Source of the DNA: Agrobacterium tumefaciens
GTDB taxonomy: Bacteria; Pseudomonadota; Alphaproteobacteria; Rhizobiales; Rhizobiaceae
Direction of reading: 5' to 3'
DNA: 64,000 nt
Assembly (NCBI GenBank): GCA_017744915.1
Contig: JAGIAH010000012.1
Coordinates: 84,794 to 148,793 of the forward strand
This document shows, in pieces, positions 53,533 to 63,953 of the stretch. Below the pieces are notes generated by a model. That model was not told the DNA's origin. It searched no databases and worked only from the letters and a program-made list of their open reading frames with translations. The number at the start of each line of letters is the position of its first letter. The first letter of the stretch is position 1. Position numbers and translations under genes: made by a program.

Positions 53533-53913
53533 CTATGTGAGCTTTCGGCAGGAGCCCACGTCATCCGCACGCGGGCGACCGGCCTTGAGATCCTCGTATC
53601 TCGGCAAATCCAGGGAACCGCCCAGCCTTTTCTCAACGGTAGCGCGATCGAGCGTGATCATGCGCCCGGCGCTGGTGAAGGACACCATGCCATTCTTTCC
53701 GGAATACGCCATGGTTGCGCGCATATCGCAGAAATAGCGGTCGGAGCCTTTAGACAGGTTCCAGCCCCGGATTCCCGCCTTATTGCTCGACAAAGCGCCG
53801 ACTTTGTAACCTTGGCCAGAAAGCTCCTTAAAGGAAGCAGCCTGCGCCGCGACAGGCAAACTCAGCAGAGCCACGGCGAGCAATGGCGAAAAAACTGAAA
53901 ATCTCATGGTCAC
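53533..53913 (-). CDS. Small secreted protein of unknown function
   Basis: 126-residue protein with a clear signal peptide (about 1-25, cleavage near AQA-A), leaving about 100 residues with two cysteines (YFCDM near 62 and the C-terminal SCRKLT) that could form one disulfide. I do not recognise the family. Its ribosome site AAAGGG overlaps the stop codon of the upstream alcohol dehydrogenase gene, 12 bases away, so it is probably the last gene of that operon. GTG 53913 or ATG 53907 may be the start. Confidence 0.7.
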   Translation of the reverse strand: MTMRFSVFSPLLAVALLSLPVAAQAASFKELSGQGYKVGALSSNKAGIRGWNLSKGSDRYFCDMRATMAYSGKNGMVSFTSAGRMITLDRATVEKRLGGSLDLPRYEDLKAGRPRADDVGSCRKLT

Positions 53914-53925
53914 TCTAATTGCCCT

Positions 53926-55071
53926 TTAAAAGCAGTCCTCGAACAACTTCCTGGTATTCTCCAGCGTCATCGGCACCGGATTGCCGCCGCAGCTCGGATC
54001 CTTGATCGCTTCCGCTGCCAGCTCGTCGATCCGGTCCGGCTTGATGCCCATGGCGGTCAGGTTTTTCGGCACGCCGAGTTCCTTGCGAAGCTCCAGCACA
54101 TAGTCATAAAAGCCATCGAACCCGCCGGAAATGCCGAGATAGGCGGCCGCGCGGGCGATCTTGTCTTCGATGGCGGGACGGTTGAAGCGCAGCACCGCCG
54201 GCATCACGACGGCATTGGTCATGCCGTGATGGGTGTTGTAAACCGCGCCGATCGGGTGCGAGAGCGAGTGGATCGCGCCGAGACCCTTCTGGAAGGCAAC
54301 CGCCCCCATCGCCGCCGCCGCCATCATGTTGGTGCGGGCTTCGATATCCGTGCCGTCCTTATAGGCGCGCGGCAGGAATTCCTTGACGAGCCGCAGCCCC
54401 TCCAGCGCCACGCCGGCGCTCATCGGATGGAAGAACGGCGACGAATAGGCTTCGAGGCAATGGGCAAAGGCATCCATGCCGGTGCCGGCCGTAATGACCT
54501 TCGGCATGCCAACCGTGAGATCCGGATCGCAGATGACGACGCCCGGCAAGAGCTTCGGATGGAAGATGATCTTCTTCACATGGGTCTGCGAATTGGTGAT
54601 GACGCTGGCGCGGCCGACTTCCGAACCGGTACCTGCCGTCGTCGGAACGGCGACGATGGGCGCGATTTTGGAAGCGTCCGCACGGGTCCACCAGTCACCG
54701 ATATCCTCGAAATCCCAGACCGGGCGCGTCTGCCCGGCCATGAAGGCGATGGTCTTGCCGAGATCGAGGCCCGAGCCGCCGCCGAAGGCCACGACACCGT
54801 CGTGACCGCCATCGCGATAGACCTTAACACCGGCTTCCATGTTGATTTCGTTCGGGTTCGGATCAACCTCGGCGAAGATCGCCCGGCCAAGACCCGCCTC
54901 TTCCAGCACATCGAGCGCATGCGCGGTGATCGCCATATTGGCAAGGCCGCGATCGGTGACGAGAAGCGGCTTTTTGATGCCGAGCGTCTTGCAGGCTTCC
55001 GCCAGTTCCTTGATCCGGCCACGGCCAAGCTTGACGGCGGTGGGATAGCTCCAGTTGGCGACGATATTCAT
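53926..55071 (-). CDS. Iron-containing alcohol dehydrogenase
   Basis: 381-residue NAD-dependent group III alcohol dehydrogenase. The dinucleotide-binding GGGSGLDLGKTIAF (about 96-109), VPTTAGTGSEVGRASVI (about 144-160), and the metal-binding GTGMDAFAHCLEAY and SLSHPIGAVYNTHHG (Asp and three His) are complete, so it should be active. It would oxidise a hydroxyl group of the pathway intermediate or reduce the aldehyde. It overlaps the aldehyde dehydrogenase gene by 4 bases; ATG 55071 starts the family N-terminus. Confidence 0.93.
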   Translation of the reverse strand: MNIVANWSYPTAVKLGRGRIKELAEACKTLGIKKPLLVTDRGLANMAITAHALDVLEEAGLGRAIFAEVDPNPNEINMEAGVKVYRDGGHDGVVAFGGGSGLDLGKTIAFMAGQTRPVWDFEDIGDWWTRADASKIAPIVAVPTTAGTGSEVGRASVITNSQTHVKKIIFHPKLLPGVVICDPDLTVGMPKVITAGTGMDAFAHCLEAYSSPFFHPMSAGVALEGLRLVKEFLPRAYKDGTDIEARTNMMAAAAMGAVAFQKGLGAIHSLSHPIGAVYNTHHGMTNAVVMPAVLRFNRPAIEDKIARAAAYLGISGGFDGFYDYVLELRKELGVPKNLTAMGIKPDRIDELAAEAIKDPSCGGNPVPMTLENTRKLFEDCF

Positions 55072-56456
55072 TTCGTGACTTTCTTCAGATGGTAGGATTT
55101 CGGACGGGTCAGGTTCTGGAAACCGAGGACGGAGAGCGAGCCTCCACGGCCGGTTTCCTTGACGCCGGTCCAGCAAAGCGCAGGATCGAGATAATCCGCG
55201 CGGTTCATGAACACGGTGCCGGTTTCGATCTCACGGCCAATGCGCCCAGCGCGCGTCGCATCCTGCGTCCAGAGCGAAGCGGTCAGGCCATATTTGCTGT
55301 CATTCATCAGCGCGATGGCTTCATCGTCGTTCTTGACCTTCATGATGCCAAGGGCCGGGCCGAAGGTTTCTTCGGTCATGAATTCCATGGAATGATCGAC
55401 ATTGACGAGGACCTGCGGCGCGACATAAGCGCTCTCGCCGTCATCGGCGGGAAACAGCTTCGGATCGACCAGCGCCCTGGCGCCCTTGGCGACGGCATCG
55501 GCAATCTGCGCGCGAACCACCTTGGCGAAGCGCTTGTTGGCCATCGGCCCGAGCGTCGTTTCCTGTTCCAGCGGATTGCCGAGCTTGTAGTTGGATACCC
55601 ATGCCACAGACTTCTCGACAAAGGCGTCATAGAGGTTTTCGTTGACGTAGATGCGCTCGATACCGCAGCAGCATTGCCCGGAATTATAGGTCGCGCCATC
55701 CATCAGCGTATCGACGGCGGCGTCGAGATCGGCATCTTCCATCACATAACCGGGGTCCTTGCCGCCGAGCTCAAGCCCGAGACCGGTGAAGGTGCCGGCA
55801 GCGGCGCGCTCGATGGCCCGGCCACCTTCCACCGAACCGGTGAAATTGACGAAATTGAACAGGCCTTCGGAAATCAGCGCCGAGGTCGTGCCATGGTCGA
55901 GGAAGACATTGATGAAGACATCGTCAGGCACGCCGGCCTCGACGAAAGCTCGCACCATGCGCTCGCCCACCAGCAGCGTCTGCGCCGCATGTTTGATGAC
56001 GACCGTATTGCCGGCCATCAAGGCGGGCGCGATGGTGTTGATCGCCGTCATGTAAGGATAGTTCCACGGCGCGATGACGAAGACCACACCATGCGCTTCA
56101 CGCTCGATGCGGCGTTCGAAATTGCCGCTTTCCTCGATGACGAGCGGCGCCAGCGCATCGGCCGCAATCGACGCGACATAATTGGAGCGCTCGTTGAAGC
56201 CCTTGAACTCGCCGCCATAACGCACCGGACGGCCCATCATATGCGCCAGTTCCGGCACGACGTCCGCTACCATTTCGTTGAGGCGGGCCACACCCTTCAG
56301 AACCAGCTGAACACGGTCCTCAAGCGGACGCCGCGCCCAGTCCTTTTGCGCCTTGCGCGCCTTTGAAACGGCGGCCCGTGCCGCCTCCAGCGACATCGCC
56401 TCCCGCTCGGCGTAAACCGAGCCGTCGATGGGCGAGATATTCTGGATCATGGTCAT
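55068..56456 (-). CDS. NAD(P)-dependent aldehyde dehydrogenase
   Basis: 462-residue aldehyde dehydrogenase. Catalytic residues are visible: Asn in PWNYPY (about 131-136), Glu229 in LELGGKD, and the nucleophile in NSGQCCCGIER (Cys263 by alignment to GQxC). It would oxidise the aldehyde formed by the neighbouring alcohol dehydrogenase, as PuuC does in putrescine breakdown. Start at 56456 with GGGAAA upstream; an in-frame ATG two codons later is possible. It is 18 bases after the glutamine-synthetase-like gene. Confidence 0.93.
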   Translation of the reverse strand: MTMIQNISPIDGSVYAEREAMSLEAARAAVSKARKAQKDWARRPLEDRVQLVLKGVARLNEMVADVVPELAHMMGRPVRYGGEFKGFNERSNYVASIAADALAPLVIEESGNFERRIEREAHGVVFVIAPWNYPYMTAINTIAPALMAGNTVVIKHAAQTLLVGERMVRAFVEAGVPDDVFINVFLDHGTTSALISEGLFNFVNFTGSVEGGRAIERAAAGTFTGLGLELGGKDPGYVMEDADLDAAVDTLMDGATYNSGQCCCGIERIYVNENLYDAFVEKSVAWVSNYKLGNPLEQETTLGPMANKRFAKVVRAQIADAVAKGARALVDPKLFPADDGESAYVAPQVLVNVDHSMEFMTEETFGPALGIMKVKNDDEAIALMNDSKYGLTASLWTQDATRAGRIGREIETGTVFMNRADYLDPALCWTGVKETGRGGSLSVLGFQNLTRPKSYHLKKVTK

Positions 56457-56474
56457 GATGTTTTCCCGTAATGA

Positions 56475-57842
56475 TTAGGCTCGTTCGAAACCGCGCGCCA
56501 CTTCCCAGTCGGTCACGCGGCGGTCGTATTCTTCCTGTTCCCACCGTCCGGCGTGGACGTAATGATCGATCACATCATCGCCAAAGGCGTTGCGCAGCAT
56601 TGTCGATCCATCCAGAAACGCAGTGGCGTCACGCAAGGTCTTGGGTATCTCGCGCACGTCCTTGCCGCCATAGGCATCGCCGACAAAAGCGGGCTCAAGT
56701 TCAAGTTTATTTTCGATGCCGTCAATGCCCGCCGCAAGAAGAGCCGCCATGGCGAGATAGGGATTGAGATCGGATCCGCCGACACGGCACTCGATGCGAA
56801 TACCTTTCGTGCCCTCACCGCAGAGGCGATATCCCGCTGTGCGGTTGTCGAGGCTCCAGATCGCCTTGGTGGGCGCAAACGTGCCGGCCATGAAGCGTTT
56901 GTAGGAATTGATGTAGGGCGCAAGGAAATAGGTGATCTCGCTGGCATGGGCGAGAAGCCCGGCAACATAATGCCGCATCAGCTCCGACATGCCGTGCTTG
57001 GCGTCCTTGTCGAGGAAGGCCGGCGTCTTGCCATCGGCGGTCCACAGCGACTGGTGAATATGCGAGGAACTGCCGGCGGCATTATAGTTCCACTTGGCAA
57101 GGAACGTCACCGCCTTGCCCTTCGACCAGGCGATCTCCTTGGTGGCGTTCTTGATGATGGCGTGCCGATCGGCCATGGTCAGCGCATCGGCATAACGCAC
57201 GTTGATTTCCGCCTGGCCGGGAGACGCCTCGCCCTTGGAATTCTCGACCGGAATGCCGGCACCCTGCAGGCCCTTGCGCAGCGCCCGCATGACATCCTCT
57301 TCCTTCGTGGTCTGGAAGATGTGGTAATCCTCATTATAACCGCTGGCGAGGTTCAGCCCCTTGTAACCGCTGGCGCGCGCCGCATCGAAGGTCTGGTCGA
57401 ACAGGAAGAACTCCAGCTCCGTCGCCATATAGGCCTTGAGCCCCATGGCCTCCAGCCGCGCAACCTGCTTTTTCAAAAGCGCCCGTGGCGAATGCGGCAC
57501 TTCTTCATGGGTGTGGTGATCGAGCACGTCGCACAGCACCAGCGCCGTGCCTTCCAGCCAGGGCACGCGCCGCAGCGTCGAGAGGTCGGGTTTCAGCACA
57601 TAGTCGCCATAACCCTTTTCCCAGCTCGAGGATTTGTAACCGGGAACGGTTTCCATCTCCATGTCGGTGGCAAGCACGTAATTGCAGCTATGGGTTTCCT
57701 CAAAGGCGCTTTCAACGAAGAACTCGGCCTGGAACCGTTTGCCCATCAGACGCCCCTGCATGTCGACAAGGCAGGCCAGAACCGTGTCGATGCGCCCCTC
57801 GGCGACATCCATTTTAAGCGCGTCGAATGTGTAGCTCGTCAT
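56475..57842 (-). CDS. Glutamine-synthetase-family gamma-glutamyl-amine ligase (PuuA-like)
   Basis: 455-residue enzyme with the glutamine synthetase fold: ATELEFFLF (about 140-148) with the metal glutamates, PGQAEINVRYADAL, AGSSSHIHQSLW (for NGSGMHxHxSL) and RIECRVGGSDLNPYLAMAAL. The C-terminal adenylylation loop with NLYDLP is absent, so it is not a housekeeping GlnA. In PuuA-type relatives glutamate is ligated to putrescine, ethanolamine or isopropylamine. With a permease and two dehydrogenases in the operon, it probably activates an amine or amino alcohol. Confidence 0.87.
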   Translation of the reverse strand: MTSYTFDALKMDVAEGRIDTVLACLVDMQGRLMGKRFQAEFFVESAFEETHSCNYVLATDMEMETVPGYKSSSWEKGYGDYVLKPDLSTLRRVPWLEGTALVLCDVLDHHTHEEVPHSPRALLKKQVARLEAMGLKAYMATELEFFLFDQTFDAARASGYKGLNLASGYNEDYHIFQTTKEEDVMRALRKGLQGAGIPVENSKGEASPGQAEINVRYADALTMADRHAIIKNATKEIAWSKGKAVTFLAKWNYNAAGSSSHIHQSLWTADGKTPAFLDKDAKHGMSELMRHYVAGLLAHASEITYFLAPYINSYKRFMAGTFAPTKAIWSLDNRTAGYRLCGEGTKGIRIECRVGGSDLNPYLAMAALLAAGIDGIENKLELEPAFVGDAYGGKDVREIPKTLRDATAFLDGSTMLRNAFGDDVIDHYVHAGRWEQEEYDRRVTDWEVARGFERA

Positions 57843-57871
57843 TTTTGTCCGTTCCCTTTTATTGTGGCGAG

Positions 57872-57896
57872 CGGGCGGCCGGCAGACGGCCGCCCG
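57872..57896 (-). other. Strong hairpin between permease and PuuA-like genes
   Basis: CGGGCGGCCG pairs perfectly with CGGCCGCCCG across a 5-base loop in the 66-base spacer. No T run follows on the minus strand, so it is more likely an mRNA stabiliser or partial attenuator than a terminator. Confidence 0.5.
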
Positions 57897-57908
57897 TTTG
57901 TTTGTGCA

Positions 57909-59423
57909 TCAGGCCTTTGCGGCCGCCGCGGCCATGGCGGCCTGTTTGTGCTCCATCGCGAATTCCTCTTCTGGCGACAGGATGAGGCGATGGCGTCCAA
58001 CAAAGGCGAAATAGGCGATCGCCACGGCGAACCAAACGGCGACCCAGAGCACGCCCTTGGTGAAGTTCGGATCCTGGATCTGGTAAAGCAGCGTGACGAT
58101 GGCGATGATGATCGTCAGCACCGCGCCCGGAATGCCGAAGGGCGAGCGGAACGGCCGCTCGATATGCGGCAGGTTCTTTCGAAGCAGGATGAAGGAAATC
58201 GCCTGCATGATGTAGGAGAACATCGCACCGAACACGGCCATGTTCAAAAGCACGCTACCGATGATGCTGCCGCCCTGTTCCGCACCCAGCGCGAACCAGA
58301 TGACGAGCATGACCGCAAGACCGACGATCGCGCCGGTGATATTGGCCACATAGGGTGTGCGATATTTCGAGTGGGTGATCGACAGCACGGTCGGGAAATA
58401 ACCCGCACGCGACAGCGAATAGATCTGCCGACCCTGGGCATAAAGGATCGTATGGAAGCTGGCGATCAGGCCGGTGAGCGCCACGAGGCCGAGCACCACC
58501 ACGCCGCCATCGCCGTAGATCGCCTTGAAGCCATCCAGCAGCGGCTCCAGCGAGGAGCTGAGATGGAAGGCGCCAACGCCCGGAAGCGACGGGTTGAGCA
58601 GCACGATCATGAAGGCCGAAACCATCAGCGTGACCATGCCGAGGATGATGCCCTTCGGCATGTCGCGTTTCGGGTCAACCGATTCCTCCGCCGCCAGCGG
58701 CAGCTGCTCGATGGCGAGGAACAGCCAGACCGCGAAAGGCAGCGTGGCAAGAACGCCTGAAAAACCGAAGGGGAAGAAGGAACCGCCGCCCTCCGGCAAC
58801 TCCACCGCCTTGCCGTCCGGCCCGACACCGATATTGAGCGCGAAACGCGAAAAATCGATATTCGGAATGGCGCTGATCCAGAAGAATACCAGAACGGTAA
58901 GCGAAATCAGCGTGATAACCAGCGTGACTTTGAAAGAAAGCTCAAGCCCGAAGACGTTGAGCGCCAGAAAGATCGCATAGAAGGCTATCCACACGAAGGG
59001 TGAATAGGCCGGATCGAGGCCGAGAATGGAGTTCACATAGGCCGTGATGAAGGTGACGACGACCGCCGGCGTCAGCACATATTCCACATTCTCGCAAAGC
59101 CCGGTGATGAAGCCGCCCCATGGCCCCATGGCCGTGCGGGCGAAGGAATAGGCCGCACCGGTATGCGGCAAGGCCGGGCTCATTTCCGCGATCGAGAATG
59201 TCAGCCCGAGATACATGATGGCGATGATGATGCCCGCCACCAGCATGCCGCCCCAGCCGCCGGTGGAAAAGCCGAAATTCCAGCCGGAAAAATGCCCGGA
59301 AATGACCGCGCCGACGCCGAGCGACCACAAGGACCACACGCCCGCATAACGGGATAGTCCGCGTTTTTCGAAATAGGATGCATCAGCCTTCTTATAGCTG
59401 ACGCCTGACGATGAACTGTCCAT
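57909..59423 (-). CDS. APC-family permease, ethanolamine-permease-like
   Basis: 504-residue inner-membrane transporter of the amino acid-polyamine-organocation superfamily with 12 segments. The first segments, GVWSLWSLGVGAVISGHFSGWNFG (about 29-52), closely resemble the ethanolamine permease (EAT) group, which has VGxVISGxFFGWNFG. SLPHTG-type AEMSPALPHTGAAYSFAR is also conserved. The C-terminus ends in an Ala-rich cytoplasmic tail. ATG 59423 has GGAGAGAAGG upstream. First gene of the operon with the PuuA-like and dehydrogenase genes. Confidence 0.87.
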   Translation of the reverse strand: MDSSSSGVSYKKADASYFEKRGLSRYAGVWSLWSLGVGAVISGHFSGWNFGFSTGGWGGMLVAGIIIAIMYLGLTFSIAEMSPALPHTGAAYSFARTAMGPWGGFITGLCENVEYVLTPAVVVTFITAYVNSILGLDPAYSPFVWIAFYAIFLALNVFGLELSFKVTLVITLISLTVLVFFWISAIPNIDFSRFALNIGVGPDGKAVELPEGGGSFFPFGFSGVLATLPFAVWLFLAIEQLPLAAEESVDPKRDMPKGIILGMVTLMVSAFMIVLLNPSLPGVGAFHLSSSLEPLLDGFKAIYGDGGVVVLGLVALTGLIASFHTILYAQGRQIYSLSRAGYFPTVLSITHSKYRTPYVANITGAIVGLAVMLVIWFALGAEQGGSIIGSVLLNMAVFGAMFSYIMQAISFILLRKNLPHIERPFRSPFGIPGAVLTIIIAIVTLLYQIQDPNFTKGVLWVAVWFAVAIAYFAFVGRHRLILSPEEEFAMEHKQAAMAAAAAKA

Positions 59424-59637
59424 GCCCTTCTCTCCTGATAAGAAAAAAACAAGCCAGTCAGCCATTATTGGCCGATTGTGCCCCAGTTTTCAGCGTTACG
59501 CGGGTGCTTCCCGCGCTCTGCCGCACGCACTTTGCTGTTCCCTTGCCGCTTCGCGCCTTTCCGGCTTTGTTGAATGACGGCAGTCTCCTTTTGACGGTCG
59601 GCCCCGGTGCTTTCACCATCGGCCAGCCCTTGCTCCC

Positions 59638-60411
59638 TCACTCATCGATCGATGAGAGCGCCTTCCCCATAAGCTCGTGGAGAAACCCGGCAATGGCCGC
59701 CTGTTCTCCTTCATTGGCGATGAGATCGTTGCGGATTTCGATCATGACGTTCAAAAGACCGTCCGGCAGCGCATGCAGCCGGAGCGTATGCGTCACACCG
59801 TCTTCCGGGCCATAGGGCTCGTTGCGCCTGACCTTCAGCGAGAACCCTTCGGCGCCCGAAAGCATCGCATCGGCCAGGCGGCTGTCGCTATCATACAGGA
59901 TGCCGACCTCAACCTCGCGGAACCGGCCGTGATAGACCGGCGTGAAACTGTGGATGGTCACCACCACCACATTGCGGCCGGCGGCCTGCCGTTCCGCGAT
60001 AATCTCGCTCACCCGATCATGGAACGGCACGTAAAGCGCTGAGGTGCGGGCGAAACGTTCCGCTTCGCCGAGATCGAAATTGCCGGGAATATCGTAAATC
60101 TCGCTCTTCACCGGCATGGCGGAAGGCGATTCCGGCGGGCGGTTGCAATCATAGACGAGCCGCGAAAACCGCTGGTGAACGAGCGTGGCATCAAGGCTCT
60201 GCGAAAGCAGCCGGGCGACGGCGAGAGCACCGGGATCCCAGGCGGCATGGCTCGAAAGCACGTCCGGTGAAAGGCCGAGTGTGCCATATTTTTGCGGGAT
60301 GGTCGCGGAAGCGTGTTCACAGACGAGAAGGACGTCGCCCTTCGCCATGGCGTTTTCGACGCCAACGGCCTGCCCTTCCGCTTCTGTGAAAAACCGCGAA
60401 CGCACCGTCAT
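59638..60411 (-). CDS. N-formylglutamate amidohydrolase-like zinc hydrolase
   Basis: 257-residue member of the N-formylglutamate amidohydrolase family (PF05013). LLVCEHASATIP (about 28-39), SSHAAWDPGA (about 53-62) and VVTIHSFTPVYHGR (about 150-163) hold the usual metal and catalytic His/Asp residues. The classical enzyme removes formate from N-formyl-Glu in histidine breakdown; no hut gene is here. I infer that it frees glutamate or the final acid from a gamma-glutamyl product. It lies 214 bases upstream of the permease and is divergent from the RpiR gene. Confidence 0.8.
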   Translation of the reverse strand: MTVRSRFFTEAEGQAVGVENAMAKGDVLLVCEHASATIPQKYGTLGLSPDVLSSHAAWDPGALAVARLLSQSLDATLVHQRFSRLVYDCNRPPESPSAMPVKSEIYDIPGNFDLGEAERFARTSALYVPFHDRVSEIIAERQAAGRNVVVVTIHSFTPVYHGRFREVEVGILYDSDSRLADAMLSGAEGFSLKVRRNEPYGPEDGVTHTLRLHALPDGLLNVMIEIRNDLIANEGEQAAIAGFLHELMGKALSSIDE

Positions 60412-60520
60412 GCACGCACCCCGCCCGGAAAACCCGTCATCCCCTGCAATGGCGAAAAGAATTCTTCACATTATGGCGAGTGTCAAATGGAATTTTGAAA
60501 TTTTCTCTTCATTTTCCCCA

Positions 60521-60550
60521 TTGACTCGATAGCTGGCACAGATGTTTATT
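60521..60550 (+). promoter_or_regulatory. Promoter of the RpiR gene
   Basis: TTGACT (60521-60526), 18 bases, then TTTATT (60545-60550). A start near 60557 would leave a short leader with AGGGGA before the TTG at 60590, which supports that start codon over the two ATGs upstream. An AT-rich stretch at 60487-60515 (TGGAATTTTGAAATTTTC) may hold regulator sites. Confidence 0.45.
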
Positions 60551-60589
60551 TTAGCCATGCACCGGCAGAAAGACCGGAAGGGGAAAGAT

Positions 60590-61468
60590 TTGCGCAGCAC
60601 GACCGCGACCGTGTCGGATGTCATTCATGCCCACTACGATGCGCTGACCCGTTCGGAAAAACGGCTGGCGGAGAGCCTGCTCGGCAACTACCCCGTCTCC
60701 GGTCTCGGCAGCATCACCGTCATCGCCGAAAATGCCGGCGTTTCGACGCCGACGGTGGCGCGCATGGTGCAGAAGCTCGGCTACAAGGGTTATCCGGAAT
60801 TCCAGGCGCATCTGCACCAGGAACTGGAAGCAACAATATCAGGCCCGGTTGCCAAACATGACCGCTGGGCGACCAATGCCCCCGGCCTGCACATTCTCAA
60901 CCGCTTCGCCGACGCCATCACCGGCAATCTGCGCGATACGCTGAGCGATCTCGACACCGCCGTCTTCGATAATGCCGCGGCTCTGCTTTCGGACCGCAAG
61001 CGCAGCATCTATTTCGTCGGCGGGCGCATCACCGGCGCGATTGCCGAATATTTCTTCACCCACATGCAGGTGATCCGGCCGAAAACGACGCTGATGTCAT
61101 CCAATTCCAGCGCCTGGCCGCAATATATGCTGAACATGAGCGCCGGTGACGTGCTGGTCATTTTCGACATCCGCCGTTACGAGCACGATATGACGACGCT
61201 GGCCGAAGTGGCGAAGGCCAACGGCGTGCAGATCATCCTCTTCACCGATCAATGGACATCGCCGGTGGCGCGCCATGCGCTGCACACCTTCCGGGTCCGG
61301 ATCGAGGCTCCCTCGGCGTGGGATTCCTCCGTCGTCACCCTGTTCGTGGTCGAAGCCCTGATCGAAGCGGTGCAGAACGGCACCTGGGATGAAACCAAGG
61401 AGCGCATGAACGCGCTCGAAGGCCTGTTCGAGCAGACACGGCTGTTCCGCCGGCCGGAGAGAACATGA
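60590..61468 (+). CDS. RpiR-family regulator (HTH plus SIS domain)
   Basis: 292-residue regulator: an RpiR-type N-terminal HTH (about 10-75; SEKRLAESLLGNYP and ITVIAENAGVSTPTVARMVQKLGYKGYPEF) and a SIS sugar/phosphosugar-binding fold (about 120-250; RSIYFVGGRITGAIAEYF). I chose the TTG at 60590 because GGGGA stands 6 bases upstream; ATG 60542 and 60557 lack ribosome sites and lie at or before the predicted transcription start. It stands between the divergent amidohydrolase-permease operon and the ABC genes and may control both. Confidence 0.85.
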   Translation: MRSTTATVSDVIHAHYDALTRSEKRLAESLLGNYPVSGLGSITVIAENAGVSTPTVARMVQKLGYKGYPEFQAHLHQELEATISGPVAKHDRWATNAPGLHILNRFADAITGNLRDTLSDLDTAVFDNAAALLSDRKRSIYFVGGRITGAIAEYFFTHMQVIRPKTTLMSSNSSAWPQYMLNMSAGDVLVIFDIRRYEHDMTTLAEVAKANGVQIILFTDQWTSPVARHALHTFRVRIEAPSAWDSSVVTLFVVEALIEAVQNGTWDETKERMNALEGLFEQTRLFRRPERT

Positions 61469-61758: not shown

Positions 61759-62865
61759 GTGATCTCTCACTGCCGCCGACTGCTTGCTACGACCACCGCA
61801 CTGGTCATCGCCTCCACCGCGATTGCCGCCGCTGAACCGAGCGCCGAACTGATCGCTGCCGCCAAGAAGGAAGGCATGCTGACCACCGTCGCGCTGCCGC
61901 ACGACTGGTGTGGTTACGGCGACGTCATCGCCGCTTTCAAGGCGAAGTACCCGGAAATCACCGTCAACGAACTGAACCCGGACGCCGGCTCTGCCGATGA
62001 AGTCGAAGCCATCAAGGCGAACAAGGACAACAAGGGCCCGCAGGCTCCTGACGTCGTTGACGTCGGTCTCGCCTTCGGCCCGCAGATGAAGGCCGAAGGC
62101 CTGCTGCAGCCCTACAAGGTCTCCACCTGGGCCGAAATCCCTGACAACGTCAAGGATGCCGACGGCTACTGGTACGGCGACTATTACGGCGTCATGTCGA
62201 TGTTCGTGAACAAGGACCTCGTCAAGAACACGCCGAAGGACTGGGCCGACCTGCTGAAGCCGGAATATTCCGGTCAGGTAGCGCTCGCCGGCGATCCGCG
62301 CGCCTCCAATCAGGCGATCCTCGGCGTTCTCGCCGCCGGTCTTTCCACCGGCGCAAAGTCCGGCAAGGAAGCCGGCGAAGCTGGCCTGAAGTACTTTGCC
62401 GACCTCAACAAGGCGGGCAACTTCCTGCCGGTCATCGGCAAGGCCGGCACGCTAGCACAGGGCGCAACCCCGATCATCGTCGCCTGGGACTATAACGCCC
62501 TTTCCTGGAAGAAGACGCTGAACGACAACCCGCCGACCGAAGTCGTCGTTCCTGAGAAGGGCGTTCTCGCCGGCGTTTACGTTCAGGGCATTTCCGCCTA
62601 CGCGCCGCATCCGAACGCCGCGAAGCTGTGGATGGAACACCTCTACTCCGACGACGGTCAGCTCGGCTGGCTGAAGGGCTATTGCCACCCGATCCGCTTC
62701 AACGCCATGGTCAAGGCCGGCAAGGTTCCGCAGGCGCTGATCGACAGCCTGCCGCCGGCAGCAGCCTATGAAAAGGCGATCTTCCCGACACTCGAGGAAG
62801 TTGATGCCAACAAGGCTGCCGTCACCGGCGGCTGGGACAGCGTCGTCGGCGCAAACGTGAAGTAA
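61759..62865 (+). CDS. ABC transporter solute-binding protein, PotD/SBP_bac_6-like
   Basis: 368-residue periplasmic binding protein with a signal peptide (about 1-24, ending IAA-A) and a mature type II binding fold (AAKKEGMLTTVALPHDWCGYGDVIAAFKAKYP, about 34-65). Family membership is near AfuA, PotD and PhnS proteins, which bind iron(III), polyamines or aminoethylphosphonate. The ligand is not readable. GTG start at 61759 with AAGAGGAG upstream. It precedes two permease genes and may share regulation by RpiR. Confidence 0.85.
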   Translation: MISHCRRLLATTTALVIASTAIAAAEPSAELIAAAKKEGMLTTVALPHDWCGYGDVIAAFKAKYPEITVNELNPDAGSADEVEAIKANKDNKGPQAPDVVDVGLAFGPQMKAEGLLQPYKVSTWAEIPDNVKDADGYWYGDYYGVMSMFVNKDLVKNTPKDWADLLKPEYSGQVALAGDPRASNQAILGVLAAGLSTGAKSGKEAGEAGLKYFADLNKAGNFLPVIGKAGTLAQGATPIIVAWDYNALSWKKTLNDNPPTEVVVPEKGVLAGVYVQGISAYAPHPNAAKLWMEHLYSDDGQLGWLKGYCHPIRFNAMVKAGKVPQALIDSLPPAAAYEKAIFPTLEEVDANKAAVTGGWDSVVGANVK

Positions 62866-62877
62866 ACTGTTGAAAAC

Positions 62878-62912
62878 GCACCCCGGCCGATCAAAAGCCG
62901 GGGTGCTTCTTT
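62878..62912 (+). terminator. Hairpin between binding protein and permease genes
   Basis: GCACCCCGGC (62878-62887) pairs perfectly with GCCGGGGTGC (62897-62906), followed by TTCTTT. In ABC operons such hairpins let the binding protein be made in excess by partial termination or mRNA protection. Confidence 0.65.
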
Positions 62913-62916
62913 AAAA

Positions 62917-62961
62917 GCATTTCCAGTAAAAGTGCGCAGCGGTTTTACGTCCGGAAAATGC
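62917..62961. repeat. Long imperfect hairpin, rhizobial intergenic repeat-like
   Basis: GCATTTCC/GGAAAATGC outer arms and GTAAAA/TTTTAC inner arms form a nested hairpin. The sequence around CAGCGGTTTTACGTCCGG resembles a dispersed element I know between many rhizobial genes; that is recognition from memory. A second small palindrome, CCGTTTTGAAAACGG, lies at 63038-63052. Confidence 0.5.
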
Positions 62962-63068
62962 GCAAGACCAAAATCGAGAGCGCGTCCAACATTTCCGTTT
63001 TAACCGGATGTGCTCGAGAAAGACCTTTATAGACAGACCGTTTTGAAAACGGCGTTTGGGGACAAGGC

Positions 63069-63953
63069 ATGTCATCAACCAACACCGGCGGACCATCCGA
63101 CGCGGGCAGAAGATTGCCGCTGCACTGGATAGGCGTCGTACCTTTTGCCGTCTTTGTTATGCTGTTCCTGATCCTGCCGACGATGAAGATCGTCATAGGC
63201 GCGTTTCAGCAGACGGATGGCAGCTTCACGCTGGACAACATTGCCGGGCTTTTCACCTCGTCGATCCTTGCCGCCTACTGGATTTCGATCAAGATCAGCC
63301 TCGCTTCGGCAGCACTTGGCTGCCTGATCGGTTTTGCCGTGGCCGCAGCCGTCGTGCTGGGCGGCCTGCCGCAGCGTATCCGCGGCCCGCTTCTCACCTT
63401 TTCCGGTGTCGCCTCGCAATTTGCCGGCGTGCCGCTCGCCTTCGCCTTCATCGCCACGCTTGGGCCGGTCGGCCTGCTCACCGTGTTTTTGAAAACGCAG
63501 GTCGGCATTGATCTGAGGCTTCTCGGCTTCAACATCCTCTCCTTCTGGGGCCTCACCGTCACCTACCTGTTCTTCCAGATCCCGCTGATGATCCTCATCA
63601 TCACGCCGGCGCTGGACGGGCTGAAGCGCGAATGGCGCGAGGCGGCGGAAATTCTAGGCGCGACCGGGTTTCAATATTGGCGCATGGTGGCCTTCCCCAT
63701 CCTGCTGCCATCGCTGCTCGGCACCATGTCACTGCTGTTTGCCAATGCCTTCGGCGCGGTGGCCACCGCGATCGCGCTCACCGGCTCCTCGCTCAACATC
63801 GTGCCGATCCTGCTCTTCGCGCAGATTCGCGGCGACGTTCTCGGCAATCCGCATCTCGGTTACGCGCTCGCCTTCGGCATGATCGTCGTGACCGGCATTG
63901 CCAATGCACTTTATATCTGGCTGCGCGCCCGCAGCGAAAGGTGGCTGAAATGA
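63069..63953 (+). CDS. ABC transporter permease (PotB/AfuB type)
   Basis: 294-residue inner-membrane permease with six predicted segments and the ABC-contact EAA motif (EWREAAEILGATGFQYW, about 201-217). It pairs with the binding protein upstream and the partial second permease, whose start overlaps its stop by 4 bases. PotB/PhnU-like spacing suggests import of an amine, phosphonate or similar small ligand. Confidence 0.88.
   Translation: MSSTNTGGPSDAGRRLPLHWIGVVPFAVFVMLFLILPTMKIVIGAFQQTDGSFTLDNIAGLFTSSILAAYWISIKISLASAALGCLIGFAVAAAVVLGGLPQRIRGPLLTFSGVASQFAGVPLAFAFIATLGPVGLLTVFLKTQVGIDLRLLGFNILSFWGLTVTYLFFQIPLMILIITPALDGLKREWREAAEILGATGFQYWRMVAFPILLPSLLGTMSLLFANAFGAVATAIALTGSSLNIVPILLFAQIRGDVLGNPHLGYALAFGMIVVTGIANALYIWLRARSERWLK

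What the first reader, a model, noticed from the sequence alone, without database searches (positions are those of the whole stretch)
53533..60411. Possible gamma-glutamylation pathway for an amino alcohol, with an iron alcohol dehydrogenase in place of an amine oxidase
The set is an ethanolamine-type APC permease, a PuuA-like glutamine synthetase homologue, an aldehyde dehydrogenase and an iron alcohol dehydrogenase in tight linkage, with an N-formylglutamate-amidohydrolase-like hydrolase just upstream. The E. coli Puu route uses PuuP, PuuA, PuuB (amine oxidase), PuuC and PuuD. Here the oxidase is replaced by an alcohol dehydrogenase and PuuD by a different hydrolase family. If PuuA-like adds glutamate to ethanolamine (known for some GS relatives) the alcohol dehydrogenase could make the aldehyde, the aldehyde dehydrogenase gamma-glutamylglycine, and the hydrolase could free glycine and glutamate without ethanolamine ammonia-lyase. 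The sequence shows the genes; the pathway is inference.
Basis: partly seen in the sequence, partly recalled or inferred. Interest (0 to 1): 0.78.

Follow-up and report, generated by a model that had tools for sequence, protein, structure and literature searches.

The report
Known ethanolamine gamma-glutamylation operon, Agrobacterium version
This is an ordinary soil-bacterium gene set for eating ethanolamine by first attaching glutamate to it, a route already described in print for close relatives of these genes; what may be worth a follow-up is that its uptake protein has repeatedly been exchanged between three different kinds.

Summary
The five genes are really there, on one strand: hydrolase (PF05013), ethanolamine-type permease, glutamine-synthetase-like ligase (PF00120), aldehyde dehydrogenase (PF00171), iron alcohol dehydrogenase (PF00465), with a divergent RpiR-type regulator gene. 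A review table gives the same four families for ethanolamine gamma-glutamylation in Chromohalobacter salexigens (PMC9397018). In Phaeobacter the same four enzymes are induced on phosphorylethanolamine, and its authors call the genes close to those shown to work in C. salexigens and Agrobacterium tumefaciens C58 (PMC10132767). The window is an Agrobacterium-type copy: its ligase is 99% identical to A. leguminum, its hydrolase aligns end to end with A. tumefaciens Atu2144, PDB 2ODF. No EutB match was found in the genome. Additions here: gene order kept in 78 of 80 related loci; a conserved double palindrome and promoter; and three transporter types (two distant APC subfamilies, one TRAP) exchanged in the same slot, 12 changes on a quick tree. 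The ligase is outside the PuuA branch. No enzyme activity was tested here.

The parts
59638..60411 (-). FGase-family hydrolase, inferred gamma-glutamylglycine amidohydrolase (GGAH); close relative of Atu2144 (PDB 2ODF)
   Evidence: PF05013 146.5 bits; HutG model TIGR02017 only 22 bits against a cut-off of 278.75; end-to-end match to 2ODF, 526 bits
57909..59423 (-). APC permease of the ethanolamine (Eat) type, inferred ethanolamine importer (ORF can be read from 59465)
   Evidence: best NCBIfam match TIGR00908, 360 bits, cut-off 381.75 not reached; 46% identical to the annotated Eat permease of Thermomicrobium, which also lies near a related ligase
56475..57842 (-). GS-like ligase, inferred ethanolamine gamma-glutamylase (ETAGA)
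   Evidence: PF00120 342 bits; best PDB relatives 11zs and 5dm3, E 1e-205 and 7e-197; tree; lacks the DGSS motif of this genome's GlnA-like GS
55068..56456 (-). aldehyde dehydrogenase, inferred gamma-glutamyl-aldehyde dehydrogenase (GAADDH); E229 and Cys263 by recalled motif
   Evidence: PF00171 386 bits; residues
53926..55071 (-). iron alcohol dehydrogenase, inferred gamma-glutamylethanolamide dehydrogenase (GETADH); D200, H204, H268, H282 at the recalled metal-ligand places
   Evidence: PF00465 163 bits; the four residues are invariant in 8 of 8 aligned sequences
60542..61468 (+). divergent MurR/RpiR-family regulator gene
   Evidence: PF01418 and PF01380; present in 78 of 80 loci; an RpiR gene is also part of the Phaeobacter gene map
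60496..60511 (-). operator-like palindrome 1, TGAAGAGAAAATTTCA
60454..60468 (-). operator-like palindrome 2, TGAAGAATTCTTTTC, its start 43 nt from that of palindrome 1, over the inferred -10 region
   Evidence: only exact match of TGAAGAATTCTNTTC in the genome held, one further match with one mismatch
60459..60486 (-). inferred promoter of the enzyme operon, TTGACA and AATTC 17 nt apart
   Evidence: TTGAC-N17..19-AATTC in 74 of 78 loci

Best explanation
The locus is an RpiR-linked ethanolamine utilisation operon of the gamma-glutamylation type. The permease takes up ethanolamine; the GS-like ligase joins it with ATP to glutamate; the iron alcohol dehydrogenase oxidises gamma-glutamylethanolamide to the aldehyde; the aldehyde dehydrogenase makes gamma-glutamylglycine; the FGase-family hydrolase releases glycine and regenerates glutamate. 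The RpiR protein, probably sensing a pathway compound, is inferred to act at the two palindromes beside and over the promoter. Shown here: genes, families, order, operator-like sites, kinship to characterised relatives. Published for relatives: the pathway. Inferred for this strain: every enzyme activity, the substrate and the regulation.
For: Same four Pfam families as the review's table for C. salexigens. Phaeobacter MED193: same four enzymes plus an RpiR gene; in its Table 2 the four enzymes and the binding protein are up on phosphorylethanolamine, the binding protein binds ethanolamine with Kd 7.9 uM, and the authors state close relation to genes demonstrated in C. salexigens and A. tumefaciens C58. 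Hydrolase close to A. tumefaciens Atu2144. Ligase in a 28-row clade (SH-aLRT 99) with PDB 5dm3. The transporter slot alternates between an Eat-type permease, a second APC subfamily and a TRAP system; the Marinovum TRAP binding protein has 4uab/4xf5 as its only PDB match up to E 1e-30 (that 4uab is the ethanolamine-binding C. salexigens protein is recalled). Neighbours that would use glycine: bhc genes in two Aminobacter plasmids, a Paracoccus plasmid and one Rhizobiaceae MAG, glyA and serine ammonia-lyase in Salipiger. No EutB match in this genome and anticorrelation with EutB in the family sample.
Against: No activity, growth or binding data for this strain. The permease misses the TIGR00908 cut-off. 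Ligases 58-61% identical to this one lie in or by putative rhizobitoxine operons, so moderate ligase identity does not fix the substrate. Farther off the gene set loosens: of 32 class-wide stretches around the ligase only 14 show ALDH and ADH and only 8 show an FGase or RpiR match at the thresholds used, and one Mesorhizobium plasmid has FGase, ALDH and ADH but no ligase in the stretch viewed. The EutB anticorrelation is weaker among the 26 genomes with the highest-scoring ligases (5 of 26 have EutB against 20 of 41 without the ligase, p 0.02), not significant in the class sample (p 0.49), and not corrected for kinship. In Phaeobacter the binding protein also rose in the no-phosphate control. 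The 2015 paper cited for the demonstration in A. tumefaciens could not be read.
Confidence: 0.92

Rival explanations
1. Same chemistry on another small amino alcohol (3-aminopropanol, alaninol, serinol), with ethanolamine only a side substrate.
For: Sequence does not fix the substrate; related ligases lie in or by putative rhizobitoxine operons, whose product contains a serinol part (recalled).
Against: In related loci the transporter is in part an Eat-type permease or an EtoX-like TRAP system; the Phaeobacter enzymes are induced by phosphorylethanolamine and its binding protein binds ethanolamine.
Confidence: 0.05
2. A variant Puu (putrescine) pathway.
For: Ligase and ALDH are distant homologues of PuuA (32%) and PuuC (31%).
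Against: PuuA lies outside the clade of the window ligase; no PuuB or PuuD hit at E 1e-3 among the window proteins compared; an alcohol dehydrogenase has no evident use on a diamine.
Confidence: 0.01
3. Housekeeping nitrogen genes that lie together by chance.
For: Nothing specific; GS, ALDH and ADH are common families.
Against: Order and strands kept in 78 of 80 loci, a conserved palindrome pair and promoter ahead of the first gene, and co-induction of the relatives in Phaeobacter.
Confidence: 0.01

Closest known systems
Ethanolamine operon of Phaeobacter sp. MED193 (RpiR, GGAH, EtoVWX, ETAGA, GAADDH, GETADH; PMC10132767)
   Same: Four enzymes with the same assigned roles, an RpiR-family gene, and the same sequence of functions as far as its locus tags show
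   Different: A TRAP transporter instead of an APC permease between hydrolase and ligase
Ethanolamine genes of Agrobacterium tumefaciens C58 (cited in PMC10132767 to Vetting 2015; Atu2144 = PDB 2ODF)
   Same: Apparently the orthologous locus: hydrolase aligned over its whole length with few differences
   Different: None seen; only Atu2144 was compared, the other C58 genes were not fetched by name, and that Atu2144 is among the genes meant by the paper is inferred
Chromohalobacter salexigens glutamylation pathway (PMC9397018 Table 2)
   Same: PF00120, PF00465, PF00171, PF05013
   Different: TRAP uptake there (Csal_0678, named in PMC10132767); APC permease here
GlnA4 pathway of Streptomyces coelicolor (PMC6529630)
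   Same: Gamma-glutamylation of ethanolamine, aldehyde dehydrogenase, same end products proposed
   Different: Short-chain dehydrogenase instead of Fe-ADH (figure legend); orf5 is a glutamine amidotransferase in the legend while the discussion speaks of a formylglutamate amidohydrolase family member
E. coli Puu pathway
   Same: Logic of gamma-glutamylation
   Different: Ligase of another branch, an amine oxidase PuuB, and PuuD as hydrolase

Membership tests
Ethanolamine gamma-glutamylation pathway (C. salexigens / Phaeobacter / A. tumefaciens type) | Four enzyme families PF00120, PF00465, PF00171, PF05013 in one operon | tested here: met
   one operon is inferred from spacing and strand
Ethanolamine gamma-glutamylation pathway (C. 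salexigens / Phaeobacter / A. tumefaciens type) | Ligase orthologous to the characterised one | tested here: met
   Within a 28-row clade (SH-aLRT 99) that holds PDB 5dm3; that 5dm3 comes from C. salexigens is recalled
Ethanolamine gamma-glutamylation pathway (C. salexigens / Phaeobacter / A. tumefaciens type) | RpiR-family regulator gene beside the hydrolase gene | tested here: met
   60542-61468 and 78 of 80 relatives; only 8 of 32 class-wide stretches show it
Ethanolamine gamma-glutamylation pathway (C. salexigens / Phaeobacter / A. tumefaciens type) | Ethanolamine importer in the operon | tested here: inconclusive
   Eat-type permease under the TIGR00908 cut-off; the importer type varies among relatives
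Ethanolamine gamma-glutamylation pathway (C. salexigens / Phaeobacter / A. tumefaciens type) | Ligase active on ethanolamine; operon needed for growth on it | not testable with these tools
   needs assay and mutants
E. coli Puu pathway | PuuA orthologue | tested here: not met
   32% identity, outside the window ligase's clade
E. coli Puu pathway | PuuB oxidase and PuuD hydrolase homologues in the locus | tested here: not met
   no hit at E 1e-3 among the window proteins compared
eutBC ethanolamine ammonia-lyase pathway | EutB (PF06751) in the genome | tested here: not met
   no match in this genome, 97.9% complete; of 14 control genomes E. coli rings
Isopropylamine (ipu) pathway | IpuC orthologue | tested here: not met
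   39% identity to the annotated IpuC of pTC1, which lies outside the 47-row clade (99) of the window ligase
HutG N-formylglutamate deformylase | TIGR02017 cut-off | tested here: not met
   22 bits against 278.75
TIGR00908 ethanolamine permease | Curated score cut-off | tested here: not met
   360 bits against 381.75, best NCBIfam family by far

The most novel reading that the evidence does not exclude
The enzyme core keeps one transporter slot in which three importers (Eat-type APC, TRAP, and a second APC subfamily of the TIGR00907 type, about 23% identical to the first) have been exchanged again and again in Rhizobiaceae and kin (12 changes on the quick ligase tree). The second subfamily, in 50 of 80 loci, would be an unrecognised bacterial ethanolamine importer, and the double palindrome an RpiR operator dedicated to this one promoter.
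Probability: 0.6. Interest if true: 0.35.

Novelty: already known. Interest (0 to 1): 0.15.

Why it matters
It closes a lead: the set needs no new pathway name, and labels such as glutamine synthetase family protein, amino acid permease and N-formylglutamate amidohydrolase in Rhizobiaceae records (for example) could be replaced by ethanolamine-pathway names. What is left open and testable is uptake: one conserved enzyme core served by three interchangeable importers, one of which (the TIGR00907-like permease) has no assigned substrate that I found, and a regulator with a clear candidate operator. The route makes glycine from a membrane-lipid head group without the B12-dependent ammonia-lyase (general knowledge of that enzyme).

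Tried and rejected
Puu-variant framing rejected. The HutG reading of the hydrolase rejected. The idea that the ABC transporter starting at 61759 is co-regulated found no support: 0 of 76 gaps between its binding-protein gene and the RpiR gene hold an operator-like site. The small ORF 53533-53913 was left out (0 families). The tree is a quick one (20 of 52 inner branches open) and warns of long branches for PuuA, IpuC and the own-genome paralogues; it flags the join of PuuA with paralogue L004 as possibly false, so I rely only on the window ligase lying in a clade that leaves PuuA out. The tree is quick too (28 of 81 inner branches open); well-supported branches alone force at least 8 changes for the second-APC label, 5 for TRAP and 3 for the Eat type, and the TRAP label is no more clustered than shuffled labels (174 of 500 as low). 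In one search a first script picked wrong reading frames for three of the four own-genome paralogues; one search replaced it. Two of the 70 loci counted with both operator patterns had the two matching one and the same site (spacing 0), so 68 of 78 show two separate sites. In the counts of 80, L072 has no RpiR or FGase match, L059 begins inside the cluster, L082 has no intact permease-length ORF in the slot and L098 has no transporter there; none was dropped, save that the operator counts use the 78 with both RpiR and FGase. The class-wide EutB comparison gave no significant exclusion, and the family-wide one was not corrected for kinship. Literature: the searches listed nothing on the transporter swapping or on the second permease as an ethanolamine importer; I judged by titles, abstract starts and the passages read, and the library holds open-licence papers only.
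Full report
What is there. On the minus strand of 53926-60411 lie an FGase-family hydrolase, an APC permease, a glutamine-synthetase-like ligase, an aldehyde dehydrogenase and an iron alcohol dehydrogenase, with an RpiR-family regulator divergent at 60542-61468. The finding's first 381 bases (53533-53913) hold a separate small ORF without a family match. The window lies in a 4.94-Mb genome in 26 contigs, 97.9% complete; its ligase is 99% identical to those of Agrobacterium leguminum, A. genomosp. 13 and a Rhizobium rhizogenes strain.

Is it conserved. ALDH and ADH are in the same stretch in 80 of 80; RpiR and FGase in 78 of 80; all five have the same order and strands in 78 of 80 (match at 35% identity or more over half the protein). 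In a class-wide sample 32 of 289 genomes, the window's own included, have the ligase at E 1e-100 or better. Of 32 stretches fetched around the 32 places in the other 31 genomes, 14 show ligase, ALDH and ADH; 9 show ligase and ADH without an ALDH match beside them (L142, L148, L152, L153, L154, L161, L162, L163, L167); 9 show no ADH match (L139, L144, L147, L157, L158, L164, L165, L168, L169). FGase and RpiR match in 8 of 32, a TRAP part in 10, an Eat-type permease in 1 (counted by eye; ALDH and ADH thresholds 42% identity, FGase and RpiR 33%; L139, L154 and L156 are cut by contig ends and L153 by my own request). So the full set is a feature of the nearer relatives and loosens farther away.

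What it is. The review PMC9397018 (passages and Table 2) gives PF00120, PF00465, PF00171 and PF05013 as the C. salexigens enzymes of ethanolamine gamma-glutamylation: the same four families. In PMC10132767 (passages, section 9, reference entry) the Phaeobacter gene map has RpiR, hydrolase, a TRAP transporter, ligase, ALDH and ADH; the four enzymes and the binding protein are up on phosphorylethanolamine and the binding protein binds ethanolamine; [quoted passage not shown] salexigens and A. tumefaciens C58, citing Vetting 2015, which is not held and which I did not read. PMC6529630 (passages) proposes the same steps in Streptomyces after GlnA4. The window hydrolase aligns over its full 257 residues with PDB 2ODF, Atu2144, named hypothetical there.

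Ligase. In a quick tree of 55 rows the window ligase lies in a 28-row clade (SH-aLRT 99) that also holds PDB 5dm3, inside a 47-row clade (99) that leaves out PuuA, IpuC and the four own-genome paralogues. PuuA joins paralogue L004 (97), a join the program flags as possibly a long-branch effect. The DGSS motif of the genome's GlnA-like GS (L005), recalled as part of the ammonium site, is missing in the window ligase. Ligases 58-61% identical lie in Paraburkholderia and Robbsia stretches with desaturase and PLP-enzyme genes; PMC5789663 speaks of a putative rhizobitoxine operon of P. phymatum (passage), and that the fetched P. phenoliruptrix and Robbsia stretches are the same operon is my inference from gene content. 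So moderate identity does not fix the amine.

Transporter slot. Between FGase and ligase the 80 loci hold an Eat-type APC permease in 17, a second APC subfamily in 50, a TRAP system in 10, none in 1 (L098) and an unresolved state in 2 (L072, L082) (L059 shows the TRAP genes but begins before any FGase). The second subfamily matches TIGR00907 best (200 bits for L007, cut-off 598) and is about 23% identical to the first; both are APC-superfamily proteins by Pfam. On a quick ligase tree the three types need 12 changes over 81 labelled rows (window and plasmid loci included); well-supported branches alone force at least 8 for the second-APC label. Near neighbours of different type have good support, for example L055/L060 (95), L070/L071 (98) and L073, L075/L077 (99). 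Because the enzymes stay and the importers change, all three probably carry the same substrate; this is inference.

Regulation. Between regulator and hydrolase genes 70 of 78 loci match both palindrome patterns, 68 of them as two separate sites, starts 42 nt apart in 56 and 43 in 11. The second overlaps the AATTC of a TTGAC-N17..19-AATTC promoter pattern found in 74 of 78. In the window they are at 60496-60511 and 60454-60468, starts 43 nt apart. In the genome held the second pattern has one exact match, this one, and one match with one mismatch; the reversed control pattern has none. Of 76 gaps between RpiR and the ABC binding-protein gene 0 hold a site. Binding by the RpiR protein is inferred.

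Alternative route. No EutB match in this genome. In the family sample the ligase is in 110 of 151, EutB in 26 of 151, both in 6 against 19 expected (p 5e-9, not corrected for kinship). Among the 26 genomes with the highest-scoring ligases 5 have EutB, against 20 of the 41 without the ligase (p 0.02). In the class sample both occur in 1 of 289 against 2.5 expected (p 0.49).

Fate of glycine. Beta-hydroxyaspartate-cycle genes follow the cluster in Aminobacter aminovorans pAA03, Aminobacter NyZ550 pMET3, Paracoccus pantotrophus and one Rhizobiaceae MAG, and glyA with serine ammonia-lyase in Salipiger abyssi, as expected if glycine is the product.

Verdict. Observation confirmed, interpretation supported, already known. 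The parts I did not find in print are the transporter swapping, the second permease subfamily as an ethanolamine importer, and the operator; no search was aimed at the operator alone.

Noticed in passing
L007:6309-7865, L013:4814-6361 and 50 of 80 loci: A second APC permease subfamily (TIGR00907-like) fills the importer slot; candidate ethanolamine importer without an assigned substrate that I found.
   Followed up: partly
window 61759-63953 and L014: An ABC transporter whose binding protein weakly resembles 2-aminoethylphosphonate ones lies beside the RpiR gene; binding-protein and permease genes are there in 76 of 80 loci, without the operator-like site. Substrate unknown.
   Followed up: partly
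between ligase and ALDH, for example L063:8422-9337, L081:8448-8930 and L059:4557-5397: 14 of the 80 loci have a gap of about 0.9-1.0 kb there; in the three loci scanned an HTH gene (L081), a PIN-domain gene (L063) or both (L059) were matched, so a toxin-antitoxin-like pair seems to be inserted inside the operon.
   Followed up: partly
L008, L009, L098, L135: The cluster without a transporter sits next to bhc (beta-hydroxyaspartate cycle) genes, on plasmids in three of the four, a link from ethanolamine-derived glycine to that cycle.
   Followed up: partly
L131, L137: A ligase 58-61% identical lies beside genes of a putative rhizobitoxine operon together with a gamma-glutamyl-GABA-hydrolase-family gene, suggesting gamma-glutamyl protection of an amino alcohol during biosynthesis.
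   Followed up: partly
L010:7105-10428: Mesorhizobium plasmid with FGase, ALDH and Fe-ADH but no ligase in the stretch viewed, next to sarcosine oxidase genes.
   Followed up: no
L142, L148, L152, L153, L154, L161, L162, L163, L167: Relatives with ligase and Fe-ADH but no ALDH match between or beside them.
   Followed up: no
window 53533-53913: 126-aa ORF with a signal-peptide-like start and no family match, downstream of the operon.
   Followed up: no
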